64,000 nt of DNA, from the NCBI GenBank assembly GCA_015232365.1, contig JADFZU010000006.1, forward strand, positions 21,456-85,455. Direction: 5' to 3'. This document shows positions 5,377 through 19,921 of this stretch, piece by piece. Both the position numbers and the translations under genes were made by a program. Origin of the DNA: Magnetococcales bacterium (GTDB lineage Bacteria > Pseudomonadota > Magnetococcia > Magnetococcales > JADFYX01). The notes beneath the pieces are model-generated. The model ran no database searches, was not told where the DNA came from, and saw nothing but the letters and a program-made list of their open reading frames with translations. Every line of letters begins with the position of its first letter. Position 1 is the first letter of the stretch.

Positions 5377-6339
5377 CTACTTAGCCAACTCCTGGTTGAT
5401 TACCTCTGTAAAATCGGTGAAAGGAACTGCCCCTACTAGCTTGATGCCGTTGATAAAAAATGTTGGAGTTCCGGTAATCCCCAAGCTTTTTCCGTCCTTG
5501 CTGTCTGCCGCAACCCGGCTGGCATAACTACCGCTATCCAGACAGTGATCAAACTGCTTGCTGTTTAGTTTTAGTTTTTTTGCCAACTTTTTATACTCAG
5601 AAATTTCTAGCTTGGAGCCTTTGGCAAACAGAGCATCATGGAAGGGCCAGAATGCCCCCTGATCTTTTGCACACTGTGCCGCTTCTGAGGCTTTTGGAGC
5701 CTTTTTATGGAATGGCAGTGGGTAGTGGCGAAAAACAAAACGGACTTTATCTCCATACTTTTTTTCAACTTTGTTTATGGTCTCTTGGGCACGACGGCAG
5801 TATGGGCACTCAAAGTCAGAAAACTCAATAATGGTGATCGGAGCCGTTGCCGGCCCTTTGGAGAGGTCTTGAGGTCCAGGGACTGTATAACGTGGTGGCT
5901 TCAAGAGAAATGCAACCTGATATTTATTGGTCAAGCTACGGAGATACATCCCCTGTAGATTCTCTTCAAGCTGATTTTGCAGGTAGGAGCGGATTTTAGC
6001 GTCCATCCCCTTACCACCTTCTGGTAGCTGGCCTTTGTTCGCCTCAATGAAGGCAGTAACATCGGCATCGGTAAGAGGCGGTATTTTTTTATTTACCATC
6101 TCATCCATGACTTGATTCACTGCAATTCCGTTGGCTTTGGCCTCCAACTCCAATAGATGGTCGATAACCATCTCCTGGACTTTTGCCTCCCGGAGTTCGT
6201 AAATTTTATGGGTGATCTGTTTATCAACATCAGCAACATCCAGCTTCCAACTCCCTACCGAAGCAGCCGGTTCTGCCGATACAGTAGTTGGTATGATAAC
6301 AGCGAGCAGAGCAAGCAGAGCAAAAGTTGGTCGAAGCAT
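5377..6339 (-). CDS. Periplasmic DsbA-family thioredoxin-fold protein with an N-terminal helical domain
   Basis: A signal peptide (about 1-22, cleavage near VSA-EP) precedes a ~120-residue helical segment resembling the N-terminal part of SurA/parvulin-type proteins (VQEMVIDHLLELEAKANGI). A DsbA-like domain then spans about 155-320. The active-site motif CPYC is at 178-181, the cis-Pro region reads TGTPTFFING, and two more cysteines (AQCAKD, HCLDSG) lie in the helical insert. This matches the thioredoxin_4/DsbG-like group, which forms or isomerises disulfides in exported proteins. No DsbB-like partner is nearby. It is downstream of two Coq10-like genes on the same strand and converges on trmL. 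Confidence 0.88.
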   Translation of the reverse strand: MLRPTFALLALLAVIIPTTVSAEPAASVGSWKLDVADVDKQITHKIYELREAKVQEMVIDHLLELEAKANGIAVNQVMDEMVNKKIPPLTDADVTAFIEANKGQLPEGGKGMDAKIRSYLQNQLEENLQGMYLRSLTNKYQVAFLLKPPRYTVPGPQDLSKGPATAPITIIEFSDFECPYCRRAQETINKVEKKYGDKVRFVFRHYPLPFHKKAPKASEAAQCAKDQGAFWPFHDALFAKGSKLEISEYKKLAKKLKLNSKQFDHCLDSGSYASRVAADSKDGKSLGITGTPTFFINGIKLVGAVPFTDFTEVINQELAK

Positions 6340-6382: not shown

Positions 6383-6817
6383 TTAATTAGAGTAAATCTC
6401 AGCGGCTCTATTTTTGAAGGCTTCTACCATCCGTTTTGAGGCTTCACCAAATACCGGCCCTAAGGCTAACTCAATAAGACGACTTTTAAAACGGAAATCA
6501 ATAAAAAAGTCTATAGTACAACCCCCGGATGGTGAGTCGGTAAACCTCCATTCGCTCTCTAGGTGTTTAAAAGGGCCGTCAATATTGGCAATGGTGATTT
6601 TTTTTCCTGGAACAACAGTATCTTTAGTTATGAAAGTCTCTCGCATCCCTTTAAAAGAGATTGTCATCTCTGACATAAATGTATCACCCTGCTCATCATA
6701 TTTCCGAGTTTTAGCCAGCCATGGAATAAATTCTGAATAACTGTCCATATCGACAACTAGATCATACATCTGTTCGGCACTATAGGGGACATGGGTGGAA
6801 GAGGTGCATTTACTCAT
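6383..6817 (-). CDS. Coq10/RatA-like START-domain protein, second copy
   Basis: This 144-residue SRPBCC/START fold protein belongs to the polyketide cyclase / Coq10 group. It begins with the usual VPYSAEQMYDLVVDMDSYSEFIPW and ends with the helix GPVFGEASKRMVEAFKNRA, which closes the lipid cavity. In eukaryotes Coq10 binds ubiquinone and supports respiration; the E. coli homologue RatA has been linked to ribosome association. With bc1 and complex I nearby, quinone handling is the more attractive reading, but this is inference. It is a tandem paralogue of the next gene upstream, 28 bases away, probably in one operon with it. Confidence 0.88.
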   Translation of the reverse strand: MSKCTSSTHVPYSAEQMYDLVVDMDSYSEFIPWLAKTRKYDEQGDTFMSEMTISFKGMRETFITKDTVVPGKKITIANIDGPFKHLESEWRFTDSPSGGCTIDFFIDFRFKSRLIELALGPVFGEASKRMVEAFKNRAAEIYSN

Positions 6818-6845: not shown

Positions 6846-7280
6846 TTAATTACGGTGCAGATATATTGCCCTTTTTCTAAAGGCACTGATCATCTGTTTG
6901 GATACCTGGGTAAAGACCGGCCCCATGATCATCTCTTTCATTTTACTTGAAAAACGAAAGTCGATAAAAAATTCCACTTTGGTCCGGTCTTCACCGATGG
7001 GGTGAAAGTGCCAGGTACTTACCAGATATTGGAAAGGGCCAGATTTAAGGTTGATCTCAATTTTTTTGTTTGGTTCGACAATGTCCAGGGTTTGGAATGT
7101 CTCTCTAATGCCTTTGAAAGAGACAGACATTTCAGCCATAAACTGGTTATCCTTATGGTCCCAGACCCTGGCTTTGCCACACCAAGGTAGAAATTTTGGA
7201 TAACTTTCCACGTCCACAACGATGTCGTACATCTGGGCTGTGGTAAAGGGAAGCAGCTCGCTGACTCTTATTGTAGGCAT
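6846..7280 (-). CDS. Coq10/RatA-like START-domain protein, first copy
   Basis: At 144 residues it is the same length as its downstream neighbour, with the same layout: LLPFTTAQMYDIVVDVESYPKFLPWCGKARVWD at the start and GPVFTQVSKQMISAFRKRA at the end. Shared landmarks (SFKGIRETF/SFKGMRETF, EFFIDFRF/DFFIDFRF) show that the two arose by tandem duplication and have since diverged well apart. It is first in a minus-strand group with its paralogue and the DsbA-like gene, divergent from the large dikinase-like gene. Annotation pipelines may call either copy RatA or a type II toxin component; no partner gene supports a toxin role. Confidence 0.88.
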   Translation of the reverse strand: MPTIRVSELLPFTTAQMYDIVVDVESYPKFLPWCGKARVWDHKDNQFMAEMSVSFKGIRETFQTLDIVEPNKKIEINLKSGPFQYLVSTWHFHPIGEDRTKVEFFIDFRFSSKMKEMIMGPVFTQVSKQMISAFRKRAIYLHRN

Positions 7281-7399: not shown

Positions 7400-10300
7400 A
7401 TGGCTACTATAACCCAGAATAACAATAAAATTCCGACCAAATCAGATGCTTTACGTGCCAATTTGCGTGAGACCGCCGTTGAGTCAATAAACATTGATCC
7501 ACGTTATGAACCGTTGCGAGAGGTGGTTGCAAATTATGCTGGTATTTTAAAAAATCTCGACCGTCTGCTTAGGGAGTTGAGCCATCCATTTCGCAACTGG
7601 ACTCTGGTTCTGCCCGAGCTTAGGGGTTTTGTTTTAAAAAACTGCTCACGTTTTGTCCGTAGCCCCAAAGGGGCCGAATGTTTTTTACTGTTAAGCGATT
7701 TTTTTCTGGTGGCACTGGAGGAGGTTCGTAACGAAGATAACCTCAGGGCGGTTTTAGAGGGGCTGACCGCATACATGGAGAAGCAGGTCCAGGTTTTAAA
7801 AGGTGAGGAGCTTGCTGAATATGCTGCAGCTTTTGACTCAATATTTTTCTCACTCTCCAAGCTTCATGATTCAAAACTGCTTCTTCTCTCCCAGAGCCAC
7901 CACCCTCTAAAACGGACTGTGGCTCTAATGATGAAAAAGGCTAAATCTTCCGGTCAGCCCTTTCCCTTCTCAACTGAGATCATCCAGCAGTTGGCGATAC
8001 GCTCCCTCAAGGCAACTTACGAATATTGGTTGAAGCAGTCTGACCCGGAATGGTATGCGGTCTTGGGGACCGATCCTTGTGAGAATATCAGCCACCGTTT
8101 TTTAAAAAAAGCTTTGGCCGACCTAGAGCAGCTCTCCTCTGAAGAGGCTAGCCATGTAGTGGCCTTGAAGTTGACCAAAATGCCTTCGTTCCTGGATATT
8201 ATTCGCCACTACCGGCAAGCTGCTGATCTGTTGGGGCAGAGTCCTGTTGGGGAGGTAAGCTCGCCTGACCACCTTATAGAGGGGCGTAAGTTAAGGTTTT
8301 TATTTCATATTATGGAGATTAAAGGGCTCTCGATGATCCATGAAGAGTCCCTTAGGGAGATTAACCGTTCTCTGGTCAAATTGATTCGTCTGCAACAAAA
8401 CTATAACGAAATCCATTATGCATTTATTACTACATTCTCATTTTTAAAGGCCAATGTGGTCACCTATCCTCATACCGCCTTACAGTGTATTGAAGTTTTG
8501 GGGGTTGAGGTATTTCGCCACAATAACAATAGGCTTGTGGAGTCATTTTTAGAGCAGACGGTCCGTTTTGGTTTTCAATTTAGTTCGGTAACAGGGGTGG
8601 ATAACGACTGGCAGCCAATCTGCAACCCTGCCCATCTTTATAATATCCGGGTCTGGCTTAGTTTGATTACCCAAAACCCTACCTGGAGTCCCATGCTGTT
8701 TTCAGCACTTATAATCAACCTGAAACTATCTGGTGCGCTGATTCGGGATACCGATCTTTTCCAAAAAGAGATATCCAAGCTTTTAAATAGCGGTATCAAG
8801 CCGGTCTATAACCTTGCTAAACAGTTTTGCCGGCAGTTACCGGTATATTATAATGAGATTGGTGCTGAAGGTGAACTGCGTACCGTCTCCACTGAGCTTG
8901 ATGAGATTAGCCGCCGCAAGGACCGCCTAATCCATTTTTTACGTAAACAGTGCCATGTAGAGAGTACCAACCGGATAGTCGACCTTGCGTTTAATATATT
9001 CAAATTCTGGCAGACCGGGGATAAGAGTGTTCTAAGCGGTCTGGTCTCCGACTCTATTTTGGAAGAAATTGTCCCTAGCGGCCCCTATTTCGACCATGTG
9101 CATAAGATAGTTGCCTCTATATCCAAGGATAAGGATCTGGAGTTTGACCCCATAAGACAGTCGTTGGCCAAGGTTGAGGCGAAGGTAAAGGCTTTTACCC
9201 AGCTACCAGAGAGCGAAGGTCGGCGGGTGGTTCTATTGATCCGCCTCTGCCATCAGCTAGAGTTGAAATATAATCTAGGCTTTAGGGGGCTTGGTCAGCC
9301 CCTGCGACGGGCGGCAGAGGACGGTATTCCGGGTATGGATGCTCTTTTGAGTATTCTTGAGAGCGGTGCGGTGGGGTATGAGCGTCTGCTGGGGCTGTTG
9401 GATGCCATGGAGTGCTTGAAAGAGACTATTTTAAGTGATGAGGTTTTTCCGGCCCGTGAGGAGATCTATCAAAAGAGACATATAGCTGTGGATATTCCAT
9501 CGGTTTATGGCTGTTATGAGGAGCGTAAATTTGATGCTCTCTCACTAAGTTTTCGTCTTGAGAATCTCGCCAACGTTGATCTTGAAGGGCTGGTGGATCG
9601 GATACCGGAAGATTTTATCACTCGTGCAGCATTTTTCCGGGTTGGCAAATATTTGCGTGTTTTTATTCGGGCGTTGGATGTGGACGGAATTACATCAAGG
9701 AAACTGAGCCACATGCGGGAGGTTCTGGAGCGGTTTTTGGAGTTGAACCACTTCTCATACCACCAATACCTGGATATTTTTCGCAGTTTTTCCGAAGCGG
9801 TTAAGGATATAATTCTCACCTATTATACCACCAACCACCGGGATAATCTGGCGATTATTGTTCCGATGATCCCCAAGTCGGCACTGCTTGGTAAATTTGC
9901 CCCATTAAAAGACCAGGATGATGTTATCTCGGTGGAGAGAATAGGTGAGTCATTTCTTAGGGATCTAATTGCCGAGACTTTTGGTTTGCAGTCCTTTGAT
10001 CGTTTTATTAGCCGGATTTTGCAAATTTTGGCAAGACAGCAAGAGGTGTTGGCTCCCCACCGTTTAGATCAACTTATGACCTACGATCCAGCCAATCTTT
10101 TCTGCTCTCTATATGAGCCGGATGCCAGGGTGCGAAATTTAATCCATCTAGGTAATAAGGGGTTTAATCTGGTGGAGTTGGTGGAGAACAAAATCCCGGT
10201 TCCGGCTGGAGTGGTATTGACCACCGAATTTTTCCGCTGTAGGTCGGTAATCAGCGACTATCCCCCTGCTAGCAAAGATTATATTGCCCGTCTTCGGAAG

Positions 10301-11626
10301 CAGGTAACTAAAATAGAGCAACAGACCGGGCAGATATTTGGCTCTAAACATAGACCTCTGCTGTTATCGGTTCGTAGTGGGGCTTTAATTTCCATGCCGG
10401 GTATGATGCAGACCATTCACAATGTGGGGCTTAATGAAAAGATTGTTGAAGGTATGGCTCTTGAGTCTGGTAACTCCTTTTTTGCCTGGGACAACTATCG
10501 CCGCTTTATTCAATCCTGGTGTATGACTTTTGAGATGGACCGGGGGATTTTTACAGATTTGATGCATAGTGCCAAGCGGCGTTATGGAGTAAAGAAAAAG
10601 CGTGATCTTAGTGCAGAGCAGATGGAAGCTTTAGCCAGGCAATACCGGAAAGTTGCCGATGAACACGGTCTGACAATTCCAGATGACCCCTGGTGGCAGC
10701 TACTTGCCGCTATTAATCAGGTGGTTGAGTCATGGGAGTCAAAAAAGGCTAAAGAGTATCGGGGTATCATGAATATATCCGATGATTGGGGAACCGCAGT
10801 GGTTCTACAACGCATGGTCTATGGCAACCTGCATCATCAAGCCGGATCAGGGGTGTTTTTTACCGCCCATCCCCACCGCAAACTGGATCGGGTGCTGTTG
10901 TGGGGTGACTACACTCCTGGAAACCAGGGTGAGGATATTGTTGGTGGCCTGGTTTCTACCAGCCCCATCTCTCTGGAGCAGTGTGAATATGACGGCCGAG
11001 ATCCAGATACGAGTTTGGAGCGTTGTTATCCACAGATCTATAAAGTTCTTCTCGAGCAGTCCTATCAACTTATTGATGTCTGCAACTGGAACTCGCAAGA
11101 GATTGAGTTTACCTTTGATGGACCAACTGAGGAGAATCTGTTTTTTCTCCAGAGCCGGGACATGGTGACCAGTAAAAACCGTCAATCCATCTTCCACAGT
11201 TTTGTTGATACTCCCCAGTTAAGGCAGTCTAAGTTGATTCAGGGTATCGGTGTGAGCGGTGGGGCGTTGTCTGGTCTGGCGGTATTTAACCTTGAGCAGG
11301 TAGAGGAGTTGCGGCGAGAGGATGCCAAGACTCCTCTCATTTTAATTCGTTATGATACGGTTCCTGATGATATCCGGGAAATATCACTGGCTGACGGCCT
11401 GTTAACCGCCCGTGGTGGCCAGACTTCTCATGCTGCAATTGTCGCTGCGAGGCTGGAAAAAACCTGTGTAGTAGGCTGTGAAGATCTAGCTATTTACGAG
11501 GAAGATGGGGTGTGTAAAATAAACGGCAATACCATAAGATGCGGTGACAAAATCAGTATAGATGGTTTTCGAGGGTTGATGTTTAACGGCTGGCATGAGA
11601 TAGAGACAACTCTGCTGCCGCATTAA
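7400..11626 (+). CDS. Large PEP/pyruvate-binding protein: PPDK-like ATP-grasp and phosphohistidine domains after a ~900-residue N-terminal region
   Basis: This is a 1408-residue protein with three parts. Residues 1 to about 900 are a mostly helical region I cannot assign. Residues about 912-1290 match the ATP-binding domain of pyruvate phosphate dikinase: GNKGFNLVEL, SVRSGALISMPGMMQT near 990, and EFTFDG...LFFLQSR at the end. Residues about 1310-1400 are the swivelling phosphohistidine domain with GGQTSHAAIVA, catalytic His near 1344. The C-terminal PEP/pyruvate TIM barrel of PPDK and PEP synthase is absent. It could therefore transfer phosphate from ATP through the histidine to another acceptor, as rifampicin phosphotransferase does. 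It is not pyruvate phosphate dikinase in the ordinary sense. It is monocistronic, divergent from the Coq10-like genes. Confidence 0.85.
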   Translation: MATITQNNNKIPTKSDALRANLRETAVESINIDPRYEPLREVVANYAGILKNLDRLLRELSHPFRNWTLVLPELRGFVLKNCSRFVRSPKGAECFLLLSDFFLVALEEVRNEDNLRAVLEGLTAYMEKQVQVLKGEELAEYAAAFDSIFFSLSKLHDSKLLLLSQSHHPLKRTVALMMKKAKSSGQPFPFSTEIIQQLAIRSLKATYEYWLKQSDPEWYAVLGTDPCENISHRFLKKALADLEQLSSEEASHVVALKLTKMPSFLDIIRHYRQAADLLGQSPVGEVSSPDHLIEGRKLRFLFHIMEIKGLSMIHEESLREINRSLVKLIRLQQNYNEIHYAFITTFSFLKANVVTYPHTALQCIEVLGVEVFRHNNNRLVESFLEQTVRFGFQFSSVTGVDNDWQPICNPAHLYNIRVWLSLITQNPTWSPMLFSALIINLKLSGALIRDTDLFQKEISKLLNSGIKPVYNLAKQFCRQLPVYYNEIGAEGELRTVSTELDEISRRKDRLIHFLRKQCHVESTNRIVDLAFNIFKFWQTGDKSVLSGLVSDSILEEIVPSGPYFDHVHKIVASISKDKDLEFDPIRQSLAKVEAKVKAFTQLPESEGRRVVLLIRLCHQLELKYNLGFRGLGQPLRRAAEDGIPGMDALLSILESGAVGYERLLGLLDAMECLKETILSDEVFPAREEIYQKRHIAVDIPSVYGCYEERKFDALSLSFRLENLANVDLEGLVDRIPEDFITRAAFFRVGKYLRVFIRALDVDGITSRKLSHMREVLERFLELNHFSYHQYLDIFRSFSEAVKDIILTYYTTNHRDNLAIIVPMIPKSALLGKFAPLKDQDDVISVERIGESFLRDLIAETFGLQSFDRFISRILQILARQQEVLAPHRLDQLMTYDPANLFCSLYEPDARVRNLIHLGNKGFNLVELVENKIPVPAGVVLTTEFFRCRSVISDYPPASKDYIARLRKQVTKIEQQTGQIFGSKHRPLLLSVRSGALISMPGMMQTIHNVGLNEKIVEGMALESGNSFFAWDNYRRFIQSWCMTFEMDRGIFTDLMHSAKRRYGVKKKRDLSAEQMEALARQYRKVADEHGLTIPDDPWWQLLAAINQVVESWESKKAKEYRGIMNISDDWGTAVVLQRMVYGNLHHQAGSGVFFTAHPHRKLDRVLLWGDYTPGNQGEDIVGGLVSTSPISLEQCEYDGRDPDTSLERCYPQIYKVLLEQSYQLIDVCNWNSQEIEFTFDGPTEENLFFLQSRDMVTSKNRQSIFHSFVDTPQLRQSKLIQGIGVSGGALSGLAVFNLEQVEELRREDAKTPLILIRYDTVPDDIREISLADGLLTARGGQTSHAAIVAARLEKTCVVGCEDLAIYEEDGVCKINGNTIRCGDKISIDGFRGLMFNGWHEIETTLLPH

Positions 11627-11646: not shown

Positions 11647-12024
11647 TTATTTGTCCTGTTTATCTATCAACAGATCCGCTTTTTTTCCACCATTATCAAA
11701 ATATAGTTGGAATATTTTTGGGCATCTGCCGCGGCCAGACCATTTTACTCCCTGGTATTCATACTTTGCTTTTAATTTTGCTTTGTATGGTTGTTTTTGT
11801 GCATGGAAGGGGGTCTCGAAATACTCTTTTAGATCGATCCCTAAAGAAGAGGCTTTTTTATCTAGCTTCTGTTTAAACTCGTTTTTGTGTTGGATCTGCC
11901 GCAGTTTTATCAACGCCTCTATTTTGATCTTTATGGCGGTAAGCGTTTTAAGATCAAGTGATTCAACATCTATATTCTCAAAAGGTATGGATTTATTTTT
12001 TAGATGTGCCATATTTTTCGCCAA
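11647..12024 (-). CDS. H-NS-family nucleoid-associated protein
   Basis: A 125-residue basic protein whose C-terminal DNA-binding region carries KYEYQGVKWSGRGRCPK (about 88-103). This matches the H-NS signature W-(T/S)-G-R-G-R-x-P, which inserts into the minor groove of AT-rich DNA. A Lys-rich helical segment (about 25-60) would be the oligomerisation part. Unlike most relatives, a ~20-residue tail follows the motif (FQLYFDNGGKKADLLID). The start is TTG at 12024, or ATG four codons later; both lie inside the end of the preceding small ORF, which suggests translational coupling. The surrounding DNA is AT-rich, as expected for an H-NS target. Confidence 0.8.
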   Translation of the reverse strand: MAKNMAHLKNKSIPFENIDVESLDLKTLTAIKIKIEALIKLRQIQHKNEFKQKLDKKASSLGIDLKEYFETPFHAQKQPYKAKLKAKYEYQGVKWSGRGRCPKIFQLYFDNGGKKADLLIDKQDK

Positions 12025-16982: not shown

Positions 16983-18587
16983 TTATAGCTGTGGTCCCGC
17001 AGCAACTAGAGCCTCTCCCTCTTCATTATCGGTATATTGAGCAAAGTTCTCGATAAACATTTTTGCCAGCTTGACGGCTTTGGTATTCCACTCATCCTGG
17101 TTGCTGTAGGTATCTCGAGGATCAAGGATTCCACTATCGACTCCTGGTAGTGCTGTGGGAACAGATAGATTAAAAAGAGGAATATTTTTGCTCTCTGCTT
17201 TGTCGATAGAGCCGTCTAGAATACAGTCGATAATGTTCCGGGTATCTTGGATTGAGATCCTTTTACCAGTACCGTTCCAGCCGGTATTGACCAGATAGGC
17301 CGTTGCACCTGATGCCTCCATCCGTTTTACCAGCTCCACACCATATTTGGTTGGGTGGAGGGTTAAAAATGCAGCACCAAAGCAGGCTGAGAAGGTTGGT
17401 GTCGGCTCGGTAACTCCCCGTTCGGTTCCTGCAAGTTTTGCCGTAAATCCAGAGAGGAAATGGTATTTGGTTTGATCAGGGGTAAGTTTTGAAACTGGAG
17501 GCAGAACCCCATAGGCGTCAGCGGTAAGGAAAATAACTTTGGTAGCGTGGCCGGCTTTAGATGGTGAGGGGACGCTATTGTCAATGTGGTGGATCGGGTA
17601 AGAGACCCGGGTGTTTTGAGTTACCGAGGCATCGGTGTAGTCAATTTTTCCGTTAGCGTCTACAGTCACATTTTCCAGGAGTGCATCCCGGCGAATGGCT
17701 TTGTAGATATCCGGCTCGGCAACAGGGTCCATGTTGATGGTCTTTGCGTAACAGCCACCTTCAAAGTTGAAAATACCGTCATCATCCCAGCCGTGTTCAT
17801 CATCACCAATCAATTTCCGTTTTGGATCGGTGGAGAGGGTAGTCTTACCGGTCCCGGATAGACCGAAGAAAATGGCTGTATCACCGTCTTGACCAACGTT
17901 AGCCGAACAGTGCATAGCCGCAATGCCACGAAGAGGCAGGTAGTAGTTCATCAGGGAGAATAGTCCCTTCTTCATCTCACCACCATACCAGGTGCCGCCA
18001 ATAATCTGTATCTTCTCCTCTAGATTAAAAGCCGAGAAGTTTTCTGAATGCAAGCCTAGCTCTTTGTAATCCTTATTGCTGGTTTTGGAACCGTTCATCA
18101 CCACAAAGTCAGGCTCGCCAAAATCGGCCAACTGCTCTGGAGTTGGTTTGATAAACATATTGGTAACAAAATGGGCCTGCCATGCCACTTCAACAATAAA
18201 GCGTACTTTCAATCGGCTGGTAGCATTGGCCCCACAAAAAGCATCAACAACAAAAAGCCGTTTATTAGATAGTTGATTTACCACTAGGTTTTTACAGTGT
18301 TGCCACTGTTTTTGGTTCATTGGCTTATTGTCGGAGCGATTCTCGGCAGTCCACCACCAAACAGTATCTTTAGTAACTGCATCTTCGACTATATATTTAT
18401 CCTTTGGCGAACGGCCGGTAAATATACCGGTCATAACATTAACTGCACCACTTTCAGTTAAAACCCCTTTTTCATACCCCTCTAATCCCGGCTTGGTCTC
18501 TTCTGCAAACAGCACTTCATAAGATGGATTGTGGACAACTTCACTAACGCCGGTAATGTTGTATTTTTCAAGATATGTTGGGTCCAT
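16983..18587 (-). CDS. pckA: Phosphoenolpyruvate carboxykinase (ATP)
   Basis: This enzyme converts oxaloacetate and ATP to PEP and CO2, the entry step of gluconeogenesis. The 534 residues match the ATP-dependent family. The P-loop [13 protein letters not shown], the metal-binding [11 protein letters not shown] and the early [12 protein letters not shown] are all present. It lies 56 bases downstream of pgi, suggesting co-transcription of two sugar-phosphate pathway genes. The presence of the ATP enzyme together with the dikinase-like protein at 7.4 kb does not mean they share a pathway. Confidence 0.97.
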
Positions 18588-18643: not shown

Positions 18644-19921
18644 TCAATCCTTTTTGCTGTTTTGGGTCAAATAGGCTCTGGCTCTTACCTTGCTATCTTC
18701 TACGGCAGGCTGGTCATAAGCATCAATATTGAAGAACTCTGCCATGATGACCGTCTCTGATTCTAACAGGATGATCATCTCACCGAAAGCACTTGAGTCA
18801 CCTGTTGCTACATTTAATGTTCTTACCGGAAGTTGGCGGTTGGTTAACGCATCTCTGGTTCCGAAAAATTCAGCGGCAAAGAGGTCGCCTATTGTCCGCC
18901 CTGCTAAGGGTTGTATTGATTTCAACTGCTTGTATTTTTTACTTATCTTCTTGCCCTTGCTGGCAGATTTCGGATCATAAAATAGAGTGAATTGTTTATC
19001 CCCAGGCCCATCGAGATATAGTTGGAGTTGAGAGTGTTGATCTGTTACCCCTCGGGCTGCAACTGGAGTTAAACCGTGGTGATTACCGTTTTTATCGGTT
19101 TTACCAAGACTTTCAGCCAAAAGTTGGCTCTGCCAAGCCGCCACATAATCCAGCCTCTGGCCATAGCTCATATAGATGCTGATATTTTTTCCAGATTGGG
19201 CCATGAGGTATTGGTTGGCTGCTCCTTGCAGAGCTGGATTTAGTTTTATGTAGGGTAGCAGGCAGTTGCTCCGCATAGTCCTGGCTCCATCAAGAACCTT
19301 TGCCACGTCAACCCCAGCTACTGCAGCCGGGAGCAGACCAACAATTGATAGGGCTGAAAAGCGACCGCCTACCGCTGGGTGGTTGATTATGGGCAGATTA
19401 AGACTTTGGGCAATTTTTCCCAGATCACTCTGAATATTTTCAGTGATAATGGCAACATGCTGGTTGAGCTTAGCACCTAAACGTTTCTGTAGGGATGGTA
19501 GGGTGGTTAAAAACTGGCTTAATGTTTCGGCGGTGCTGCCGGACTTGCTAACCACCAATAAAAAGCTTTTTTTCCAATCTATCCGGCTAAGGCTGGAGAG
19601 GGAGTACGGGTCTACATTATCGTAAAACTCTACCGGCAGCCCTTTTTTGCTCTTTAAGCCGTTAACCAGCATATCAGCCCCCAAGGAGCTGCCGCCAATA
19701 CCAAAAACAATTAACCGCTCTGCCCGCTTAGAGATTTTCTTCCGCCATTTTTTTGTGGTTTTCAGAACAGAATTATCATCTAGTAGAGCCATAAAAGGCG
19801 GCAAATTTCCTTTCTGCCAACCCCGAATATGTTGCTGTACCCGAGACAACAGTTCCGACTCCTTCTCGGCGGTTGCCTGGCAAAAGCTGTTATCTTCTAT
19901 TTTCAGTCCTATATAGCTCAT
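18644..19921 (-). CDS. pgi: Glucose-6-phosphate isomerase
   Basis: It interconverts glucose 6-phosphate and fructose 6-phosphate. At 425 residues this is the short type found in many bacteria, not the ~550-residue enterobacterial form. SIS-domain motifs are clear: FGIGGSSLGADML, SKSGSTAETLSQFL, and GGRFSALSIVGLLPAA. Catalytic-region features EFFGTRDALTNRQLPVRT close the fold. It follows the NlpD-like gene by 12 bases and precedes pckA. Confidence 0.95.
   Translation of the reverse strand: MSYIGLKIEDNSFCQATAEKESELLSRVQQHIRGWQKGNLPPFMALLDDNSVLKTTKKWRKKISKRAERLIVFGIGGSSLGADMLVNGLKSKKGLPVEFYDNVDPYSLSSLSRIDWKKSFLLVVSKSGSTAETLSQFLTTLPSLQKRLGAKLNQHVAIITENIQSDLGKIAQSLNLPIINHPAVGGRFSALSIVGLLPAAVAGVDVAKVLDGARTMRSNCLLPYIKLNPALQGAANQYLMAQSGKNISIYMSYGQRLDYVAAWQSQLLAESLGKTDKNGNHHGLTPVAARGVTDQHSQLQLYLDGPGDKQFTLFYDPKSASKGKKISKKYKQLKSIQPLAGRTIGDLFAAEFFGTRDALTNRQLPVRTLNVATGDSSAFGEMIILLESETVIMAEFFNIDAYDQPAVEDSKVRARAYLTQNSKKD

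What the first reader, a model, noticed from the sequence alone, without database searches (positions are those of the whole stretch)
7400..11626. Giant dikinase-like protein without the PEP barrel: a possible phosphotransferase for an unknown acceptor
The protein has a PPDK-type ATP-binding domain and an intact phosphohistidine domain (GGQTSHAA), but the chain ends about 65 residues after the histidine, so the PEP/pyruvate TIM barrel is missing. In its place are ~900 N-terminal residues with no recognisable domain. Rifampicin phosphotransferase shows that ATP-grasp plus His domains can serve another acceptor. The N-terminal region is the obvious candidate for acceptor binding or for partner recruitment. 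Function is inference.
Basis: partly seen in the sequence, partly recalled or inferred. Interest (0 to 1): 0.72.

Follow-up and report, generated by a model that had tools for sequence, protein, structure and literature searches.

The report
Barrel-less giant dikinase linked to GAPDH
A 1408-residue protein found in nearly all sequenced Magnetococcia (a class of bacteria that includes magnetic cocci) keeps the ATP-driven phosphohistidine machinery of pyruvate phosphate dikinase, but has swapped the pyruvate-binding part for a new, highly conserved helical domain, and its gene usually sits next to genes for the sugar-metabolism enzyme GAPDH, so it probably passes phosphate to an unknown target at that step.

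Summary
Window 7400-11626 (+) encodes 1408 aa: a helical N-terminal region (about 1-900) without Pfam, NCBIfam or PDB match, then a PPDK-type ATP-grasp domain (906-1255) and a phosphohistidine domain with His1344, ending 64 residues later. Aligned ATP-site residues and the histidine are near-invariant. The protein occurs in 45 of 48 Magnetococcia genomes and in none of about 350 other Pseudomonadota per sample (two samples). Two N-terminal blocks (357-530, 686-730) are more conserved than the ATP-grasp domain, as expected of a second functional site. New: in 32 of 44 genomes (12 of 13 families) a same-strand GAPDH gene lies beside it, often as gap1-dikinase-gapL; PGK is present elsewhere. The window's own genus has lost this arrangement. 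Best reading: a PPDK-derived His-phosphotransferase whose N-domain holds the acceptor at the GAPDH node. Main rival: a VadK-like kinase regulating GAPDH. Structure prediction failed (permitted alignment too shallow), and phyla other than Pseudomonadota could not be searched. New variant of a known kind; acceptor unknown.

The parts
7400..11626 (+). CDS of the barrel-less dikinase-like protein, 1408 aa
   Evidence: family conserved in 45/48 Magnetococcia genomes
7400..10099 (+). N-terminal region, residues 1-900, predicted all-helical, no known domain
   Evidence: no Pfam/PDB match; low-confidence AF2 model all helix
8468..8989 (+). conserved core block A, residues 357-530: mean pairwise identity 0.757, 79 of 174 positions at least 97% identical, 9 basic and 8 acidic among them
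9455..9589 (+). conserved core block B, residues 686-730 (QKRHIAVDIPSVYG.Y.E.KFDALSLSFRLE), 25 of 45 positions at least 97% identical
10115..11164 (+). PPDK-type ATP-grasp domain, residues 906-1255
10157..10159 (+). Lys920 codon (aligns with PPDK Lys22)
10373..10375 (+). Arg992 codon (aligns with PPDK Arg92)
11099..11158 (+). Glu1234, Glu1236, Gln1251, Arg1253 (align with PPDK Asp321, Glu323, Gln335, Arg337)
   Evidence: PPDK residue roles from general knowledge
11237..11590 (+). phosphohistidine (swivel) domain, residues about 1280-1397
11429..11431 (+). catalytic His1344 codon in GGQTSHAA (codons 11414-11437)

Best explanation
A dikinase-type phosphotransferase that descends from the PPDK family but lacks its pyruvate site. 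The ATP-grasp domain uses ATP (probably with Pi, as in PPDK, giving AMP and PPi) to phosphorylate His1344. The swivel domain then carries the phosphoryl group to a second site formed by the N-terminal helical domain around blocks 357-530 and 686-730, where a ligand linked to the GAPDH / triose-phosphate step accepts it. Shown: the domains, intact catalytic residues, absence of a barrel in cis or trans, two N-terminal blocks more conserved than the ATP-grasp domain, and gene linkage to GAPDH in 12 of 13 families. Inferred: that His1344 is phosphorylated (about 85%), that the function lies at the GAPDH node (about 65-70%), and that the acceptor is a small molecule bound by the N-domain rather than a protein (about 55-60% given the first two).
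For: PPDK homology over ATP-grasp plus His domain only. K920, R992, E1234, E1236, Q1251, R1253 and H1344 at least 97% identical in 38 sequences (alignment with host PPDKs). Block 357-530 mean pairwise identity 0.757 against 0.645 for the ATP-grasp domain, with 9 basic and 8 acidic near-invariant residues. No stand-alone barrel. GAPDH genes adjacent on the same strand in 32/44 genomes: gap1 upstream and/or gapL downstream, actual spacing to gapL 13-648 bp in the loci read. In MC-1-like loci the ratA/DsbA surroundings are gone but gapL stays next to the gene, and in the G007 locus gap1 stays. Near-universal in Magnetococcia, present alongside canonical PPDK in most genomes and without any detected PPDK in a 99%-complete congener, G003. 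Precedent for other acceptors: rifampin phosphotransferase (PMC4844700) and the two-component HpeHI (PMC12167813).
Against: No structure of usable quality: AF2 mean pLDDT 47 for the N-domain and 32 for residues 640-1408 with a 2-sequence alignment. No ligand motif recognised. A strongly conserved surface could also be a protein-binding site. The window's genus and one other genus have lost the GAPDH adjacency, the ratA/DsbA neighbours are about as widely conserved, and three genomes have the gene without a detected gapL (G005, G017, G023).
Confidence: 0.42

Rival explanations
1. VadK-like regulatory kinase: the protein autophosphorylates at His1344 and, through its helical N-domain, binds and regulates GAPDH or another glycolytic protein, with or without phosphate transfer to it.
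For: VadK (Rv1127c) is a PPDK lacking the barrel that autophosphorylates on its histidine, is encoded beside methylcitrate-cycle genes and interacts with those enzymes (PMC13400623). The gene here is likewise beside GAPDH genes, and the N-region is all-helical in the low-confidence model, with only non-specific helical-repeat matches.
Against: VadK has no large extra domain; here an N-domain core more conserved than the ATP-grasp domain looks more like an active site than a scaffold. The protein scores below the PRK05878 cut-off (281 against 456 bits).
Confidence: 0.3
2. The histidine domain works in trans with another enzyme, for example donating to or accepting from HPr / PtsP, or forming a mixed complex with canonical PPDK.
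For: Many genomes hold canonical PPDK as well; this genome and its congeners have a PtsP-like protein.
Against: G003 (99% complete) has no PPDK and keeps the gene; no stand-alone barrel in any genome; the dikinase clade is cleanly split from all sampled PPDKs (100/100). It would not explain the N-domain or the GAPDH linkage.
Confidence: 0.1
3. A former PPDK whose ATP-grasp/His part is now only structural or ATP-sensing, with the N-domain doing unrelated work.
For: The barrel is lost; the long branch to PPDK (about 4 changes per site in total) shows much divergence.
Against: ATP-site residues and the histidine are at least 97% identical over 38 sequences.
Confidence: 0.08

Closest known systems
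Pyruvate phosphate dikinase (PPDK, TIGR01828)
   Same: ATP-grasp and phosphohistidine domains in the same order, about 32-36% identity, same ATP-site residues, GG.TSHAA motif
   Different: No PEP/pyruvate barrel; about 900 extra N-terminal residues; 368 bits against the 843-bit cut-off; separate clade
VadK (Rv1127c) of Mycobacterium tuberculosis
   Same: PPDK-derived, barrel missing, no barrel partner elsewhere, gene beside genes of central carbon metabolism (PMC13400623)
   Different: VadK is only the ATP-grasp and His domains; no giant N-domain; different gene neighbours; score below the PRK05878 cut-off. That PRK05878 represents VadK-type proteins is my inference
Rifampin phosphotransferase (RPH) and two-component dikinases HpeHI / PpsAB
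   Same: ATP-grasp plus swivelling His serving an acceptor other than pyruvate, via a non-barrel acceptor domain (PMC4844700, PMC12167813)
   Different: Order there is ATP-grasp, acceptor domain, His (or two chains); here the new domain is N-terminal to both, and the ATP-grasp is PPDK-type. RPH model 23 bits against a cut-off of 999
Alpha-glucan water dikinase (plants; from memory)
   Same: Large N-terminal region plus dikinase chemistry
   Different: There the His domain precedes the nucleotide-binding domain and the N-terminus holds carbohydrate-binding modules; not the arrangement here

Membership tests
PPDK (TIGR01828 equivalog) | ATP-grasp domain with conserved ATP-site residues | tested here: met
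PPDK (TIGR01828 equivalog) | phosphohistidine domain with catalytic His | tested here: met
   His1344 in GGQTSHAA
PPDK (TIGR01828 equivalog) | C-terminal PEP/pyruvate barrel (PF02896) | tested here: not met
   absent from the protein and not encoded separately in the genomes searched
PPDK (TIGR01828 equivalog) | score above curated cut-off | tested here: not met
   368.4 against 843.45 bits
VadK / PRK05878-type truncated PPDK | ATP-grasp plus His domain, no barrel in cis or trans | tested here: met
   definition from PMC13400623
VadK / PRK05878-type truncated PPDK | score above PRK05878 cut-off | tested here: not met
   281.4 against 456 bits
VadK / PRK05878-type truncated PPDK | ATP- and Mg-dependent autophosphorylation of the histidine | not testable with these tools
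   needs protein
Rifampin phosphotransferase / small-molecule dikinases | acceptor-binding domain between ATP-grasp and His domain | tested here: not met
   ATP-grasp (906-1255) is followed by the His domain (about 1280) with only a short linker; the extra domain is N-terminal
Rifampin phosphotransferase / small-molecule dikinases | score above NF041857 cut-off | tested here: not met
   23.3 against 999 bits
PEP synthase | score above TIGR01418 cut-off | tested here: not met
   64.8 against 739.75 bits
Anti-phage defence protein | match in PADLOC-DB | tested here: not met
   no match; near-universal in the class

The most novel reading that the evidence does not exclude
A second dikinase of central metabolism: the N-domain binds 3-phosphoglycerate (or a close relative) and His1344-phosphate turns it into 1,3-bisphosphoglycerate for the neighbouring GAPDH, with ATP going to AMP and PPi, so that PPi hydrolysis drives gluconeogenesis past the unfavourable PGK step (or the reverse, conserving PPi, in glycolysis). 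PGK is also present in most genomes, so this would be a parallel, differently driven route. Nothing here demonstrates it.
Probability: 0.1. Interest if true: 0.88.

Novelty: new variant of a known kind. Interest (0 to 1): 0.6.

Why it matters
PPDK-type phosphohistidine machinery is known with the pyruvate barrel, without it (VadK), and with small-molecule acceptor domains (RPH, HpeHI). This is a fourth arrangement, core to a whole bacterial class, with an uncharacterised domain of about 900 residues whose centre is more conserved than the ATP-grasp domain. The gene linkage to GAPDH turns an open-ended 'unknown acceptor' into a short list of testable candidates (triose-phosphate and phosphoglycerate metabolites, or the two GAPDH proteins themselves).

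Tried and rejected
Structure prediction: only window sequences and loci from the named tools may be submitted, leaving one relative (L003); both models were poor (mean pLDDT 47.3 and 31.8), the second failing even on the known PPDK domains, so no pocket can be read from them. PGK replacement: rejected as a simple substitution, since PGK is present in 43 of 48 genomes. Regulation by a PPDK regulatory protein (DUF299): none in this genome (genome 83% complete). Recent truncation of the host PPDK: not supported, because the family and the PPDKs form separate, fully supported groups. Relation of the N-domain to the barrel: none by hhalign. Plasmids and viral contigs: no relatives. Absence in G022 rejected as real: the stretch beside its gapL is masked with N. 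Defence role: no PADLOC match. Three literature searches for this architecture or its GAPDH link found no description.

Full report
WHAT IS THERE. The ORF at 7400-11626 (+) encodes 1408 residues. Pfam finds PPDK_N and the PEP-utilizer mobile domain and nothing else significant. phmmer against the PDB aligns residues 905-1400 to residues 9-511 of the 874-residue C. symbiosum PPDK, i.e. the ATP-grasp and phosphohistidine domains; the barrel that follows in PPDK is missing, and the chain ends 64 residues after His1344. NCBIfam scores it closest to PPDK (368 bits) but far below the curated PPDK cut-off of 843.

WHERE IT COMES FROM. The closest named record is a Magnetococcales MAG (L003, 79% identity). 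All 48 genomes of the window's class are of one order. A profile of residues 12-898 hits 45 of these 48. The three others are G022, where the stretch beside its gapL gene is masked, G042, which is 75% complete, and G021, which lacks both this gene and gapL. Two draws of about 400 Pseudomonadota genomes gave no hit outside the class. Other phyla could not be searched, so 'class-specific' holds only within Pseudomonadota. One genome, G014, has exactly the length that I recall for Magnetococcus marinus MC-1 (4,719,581 bp); this is from memory.

NO BARREL IN TRANS. PF02896 was sought in 48 genomes: apart from fragments on broken contigs or frames and one sub-cut-off hit, every match lies in a frame of about 900 aa (PPDK) or about 590-680 aa (PtsP-like). 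In the window's genome the only match is the PtsP-like protein. G003, 99% complete, has the gene and no PPDK; most other genomes have both.

CATALYTIC STATE. In 38 distinct family sequences K920, R992, E1234, E1236, Q1251, R1253 and H1344 are at least 97% identical. They align with PPDK K22, R92, D321, E323, Q335, R337 and H455 (roles of the PPDK residues from general knowledge). A tree of the catalytic part separates 18 family members from 15 PPDKs (8 from Magnetococcia) with 100/100 support. The gene is therefore not a recent truncation of the host's PPDK.

THE N-TERMINAL DOMAIN. It has no significant PDB match and no convincing Pfam match, alone or as a profile, and hhalign finds no relation to the PPDK barrel. 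Conservation is uneven. Residues 357-530 have mean pairwise identity 0.757 and 686-900 have 0.637, against 0.645 for the ATP-grasp domain and 0.654 for the His domain; residues 12-356 and 531-685 have 0.472 and 0.411. Blocks 357-530 and 686-730 contain 14 near-invariant basic and 14 near-invariant acidic residues. This is the pattern of a second functional site, not of a loosely conserved scaffold, but a conserved protein interface is not excluded.

GENE NEIGHBOURHOOD. In 32 of 44 genomes with a placed gene, covering 12 of 13 families, a GAPDH gene lies beside it on the same strand: a normal-length one (gap1) upstream, a long one (gapL, about 410-430 aa with insertions, catalytic Cys and His motifs kept) downstream, or both. 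The ratA-like pair and the DsbA-like gene upstream are also widely conserved; but where the gene sits in other surroundings (MC-1-like loci, G007) a GAPDH gene is still beside it. The window's own family has lost the adjacency: its gapL is on contig C11, and a small H-NS-like gene stands downstream instead. Related genomes count as separate cases here, so the figure shows deep conservation, not 32 independent events. PGK is present in 43 of 48 genomes.

MECHANISM. Shown: domain content, intact catalytic residues, no barrel, conserved N-terminal blocks, GAPDH linkage. Inferred: ATP phosphorylates His1344 (PPDK-like, probably with Pi), and the swivel domain carries the phosphoryl group to the N-domain site, whose ligand belongs to the GAPDH node. 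The main rival is a VadK-like regulatory kinase: VadK is a PPDK without the barrel that autophosphorylates and interacts with enzymes encoded beside it (PMC13400623). Rifampin phosphotransferase (PMC4844700) and HpeHI (PMC12167813) show that the same two catalytic domains can serve small-molecule acceptors through non-barrel domains, though in a different domain order.

VERDICT. A real, conserved, barrel-less dikinase with an uncharacterised domain: a new variant of the PPDK/dikinase kind. The acceptor is unknown; the GAPDH linkage makes it testable.

Noticed in passing
window 6383-6817 and 6846-7280 (-): Tandem pair of RatA/START-like (Polyketide_cyc) proteins, divergent from the dikinase gene and conserved beside it in most loci; next to a DsbA-like protein (5377-6339).
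   Followed up: partly
window 11647-12024 (-) and the AT-rich stretch up to 12500: Small protein with an H-NS C-terminal domain match, standing where other families have gapL; the following stretch looks poorly coding.
   Followed up: partly
L034:11634-12914, L088:5130-6362, L089:6210-7499: gapL, a GAPDH of about 410-430 aa with several insertions, in nearly all Magnetococcia alongside normal GAPDHs; in the window's genus and some others a conserved gene of about 220 aa without any family match follows it.
   Followed up: partly
L091:3995-5408 (G000:C15): ArsJ-type GAPDH next to an ArsR-like regulator, probably an arsenate-resistance GAPDH rather than a glycolytic one.
   Followed up: no
L093 (G022:C175): 6001 N beside gapL; the 24389-aa 'open frame' reported there is masked sequence, not a giant gene.
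   Followed up: yes
window 16983-18587 and 18644-19921 (-): PEP carboxykinase and glucose-6-phosphate isomerase genes lie 5-8 kb downstream; no PPDK was detected in this genome, so PCK is the likely route to PEP.
   Followed up: partly
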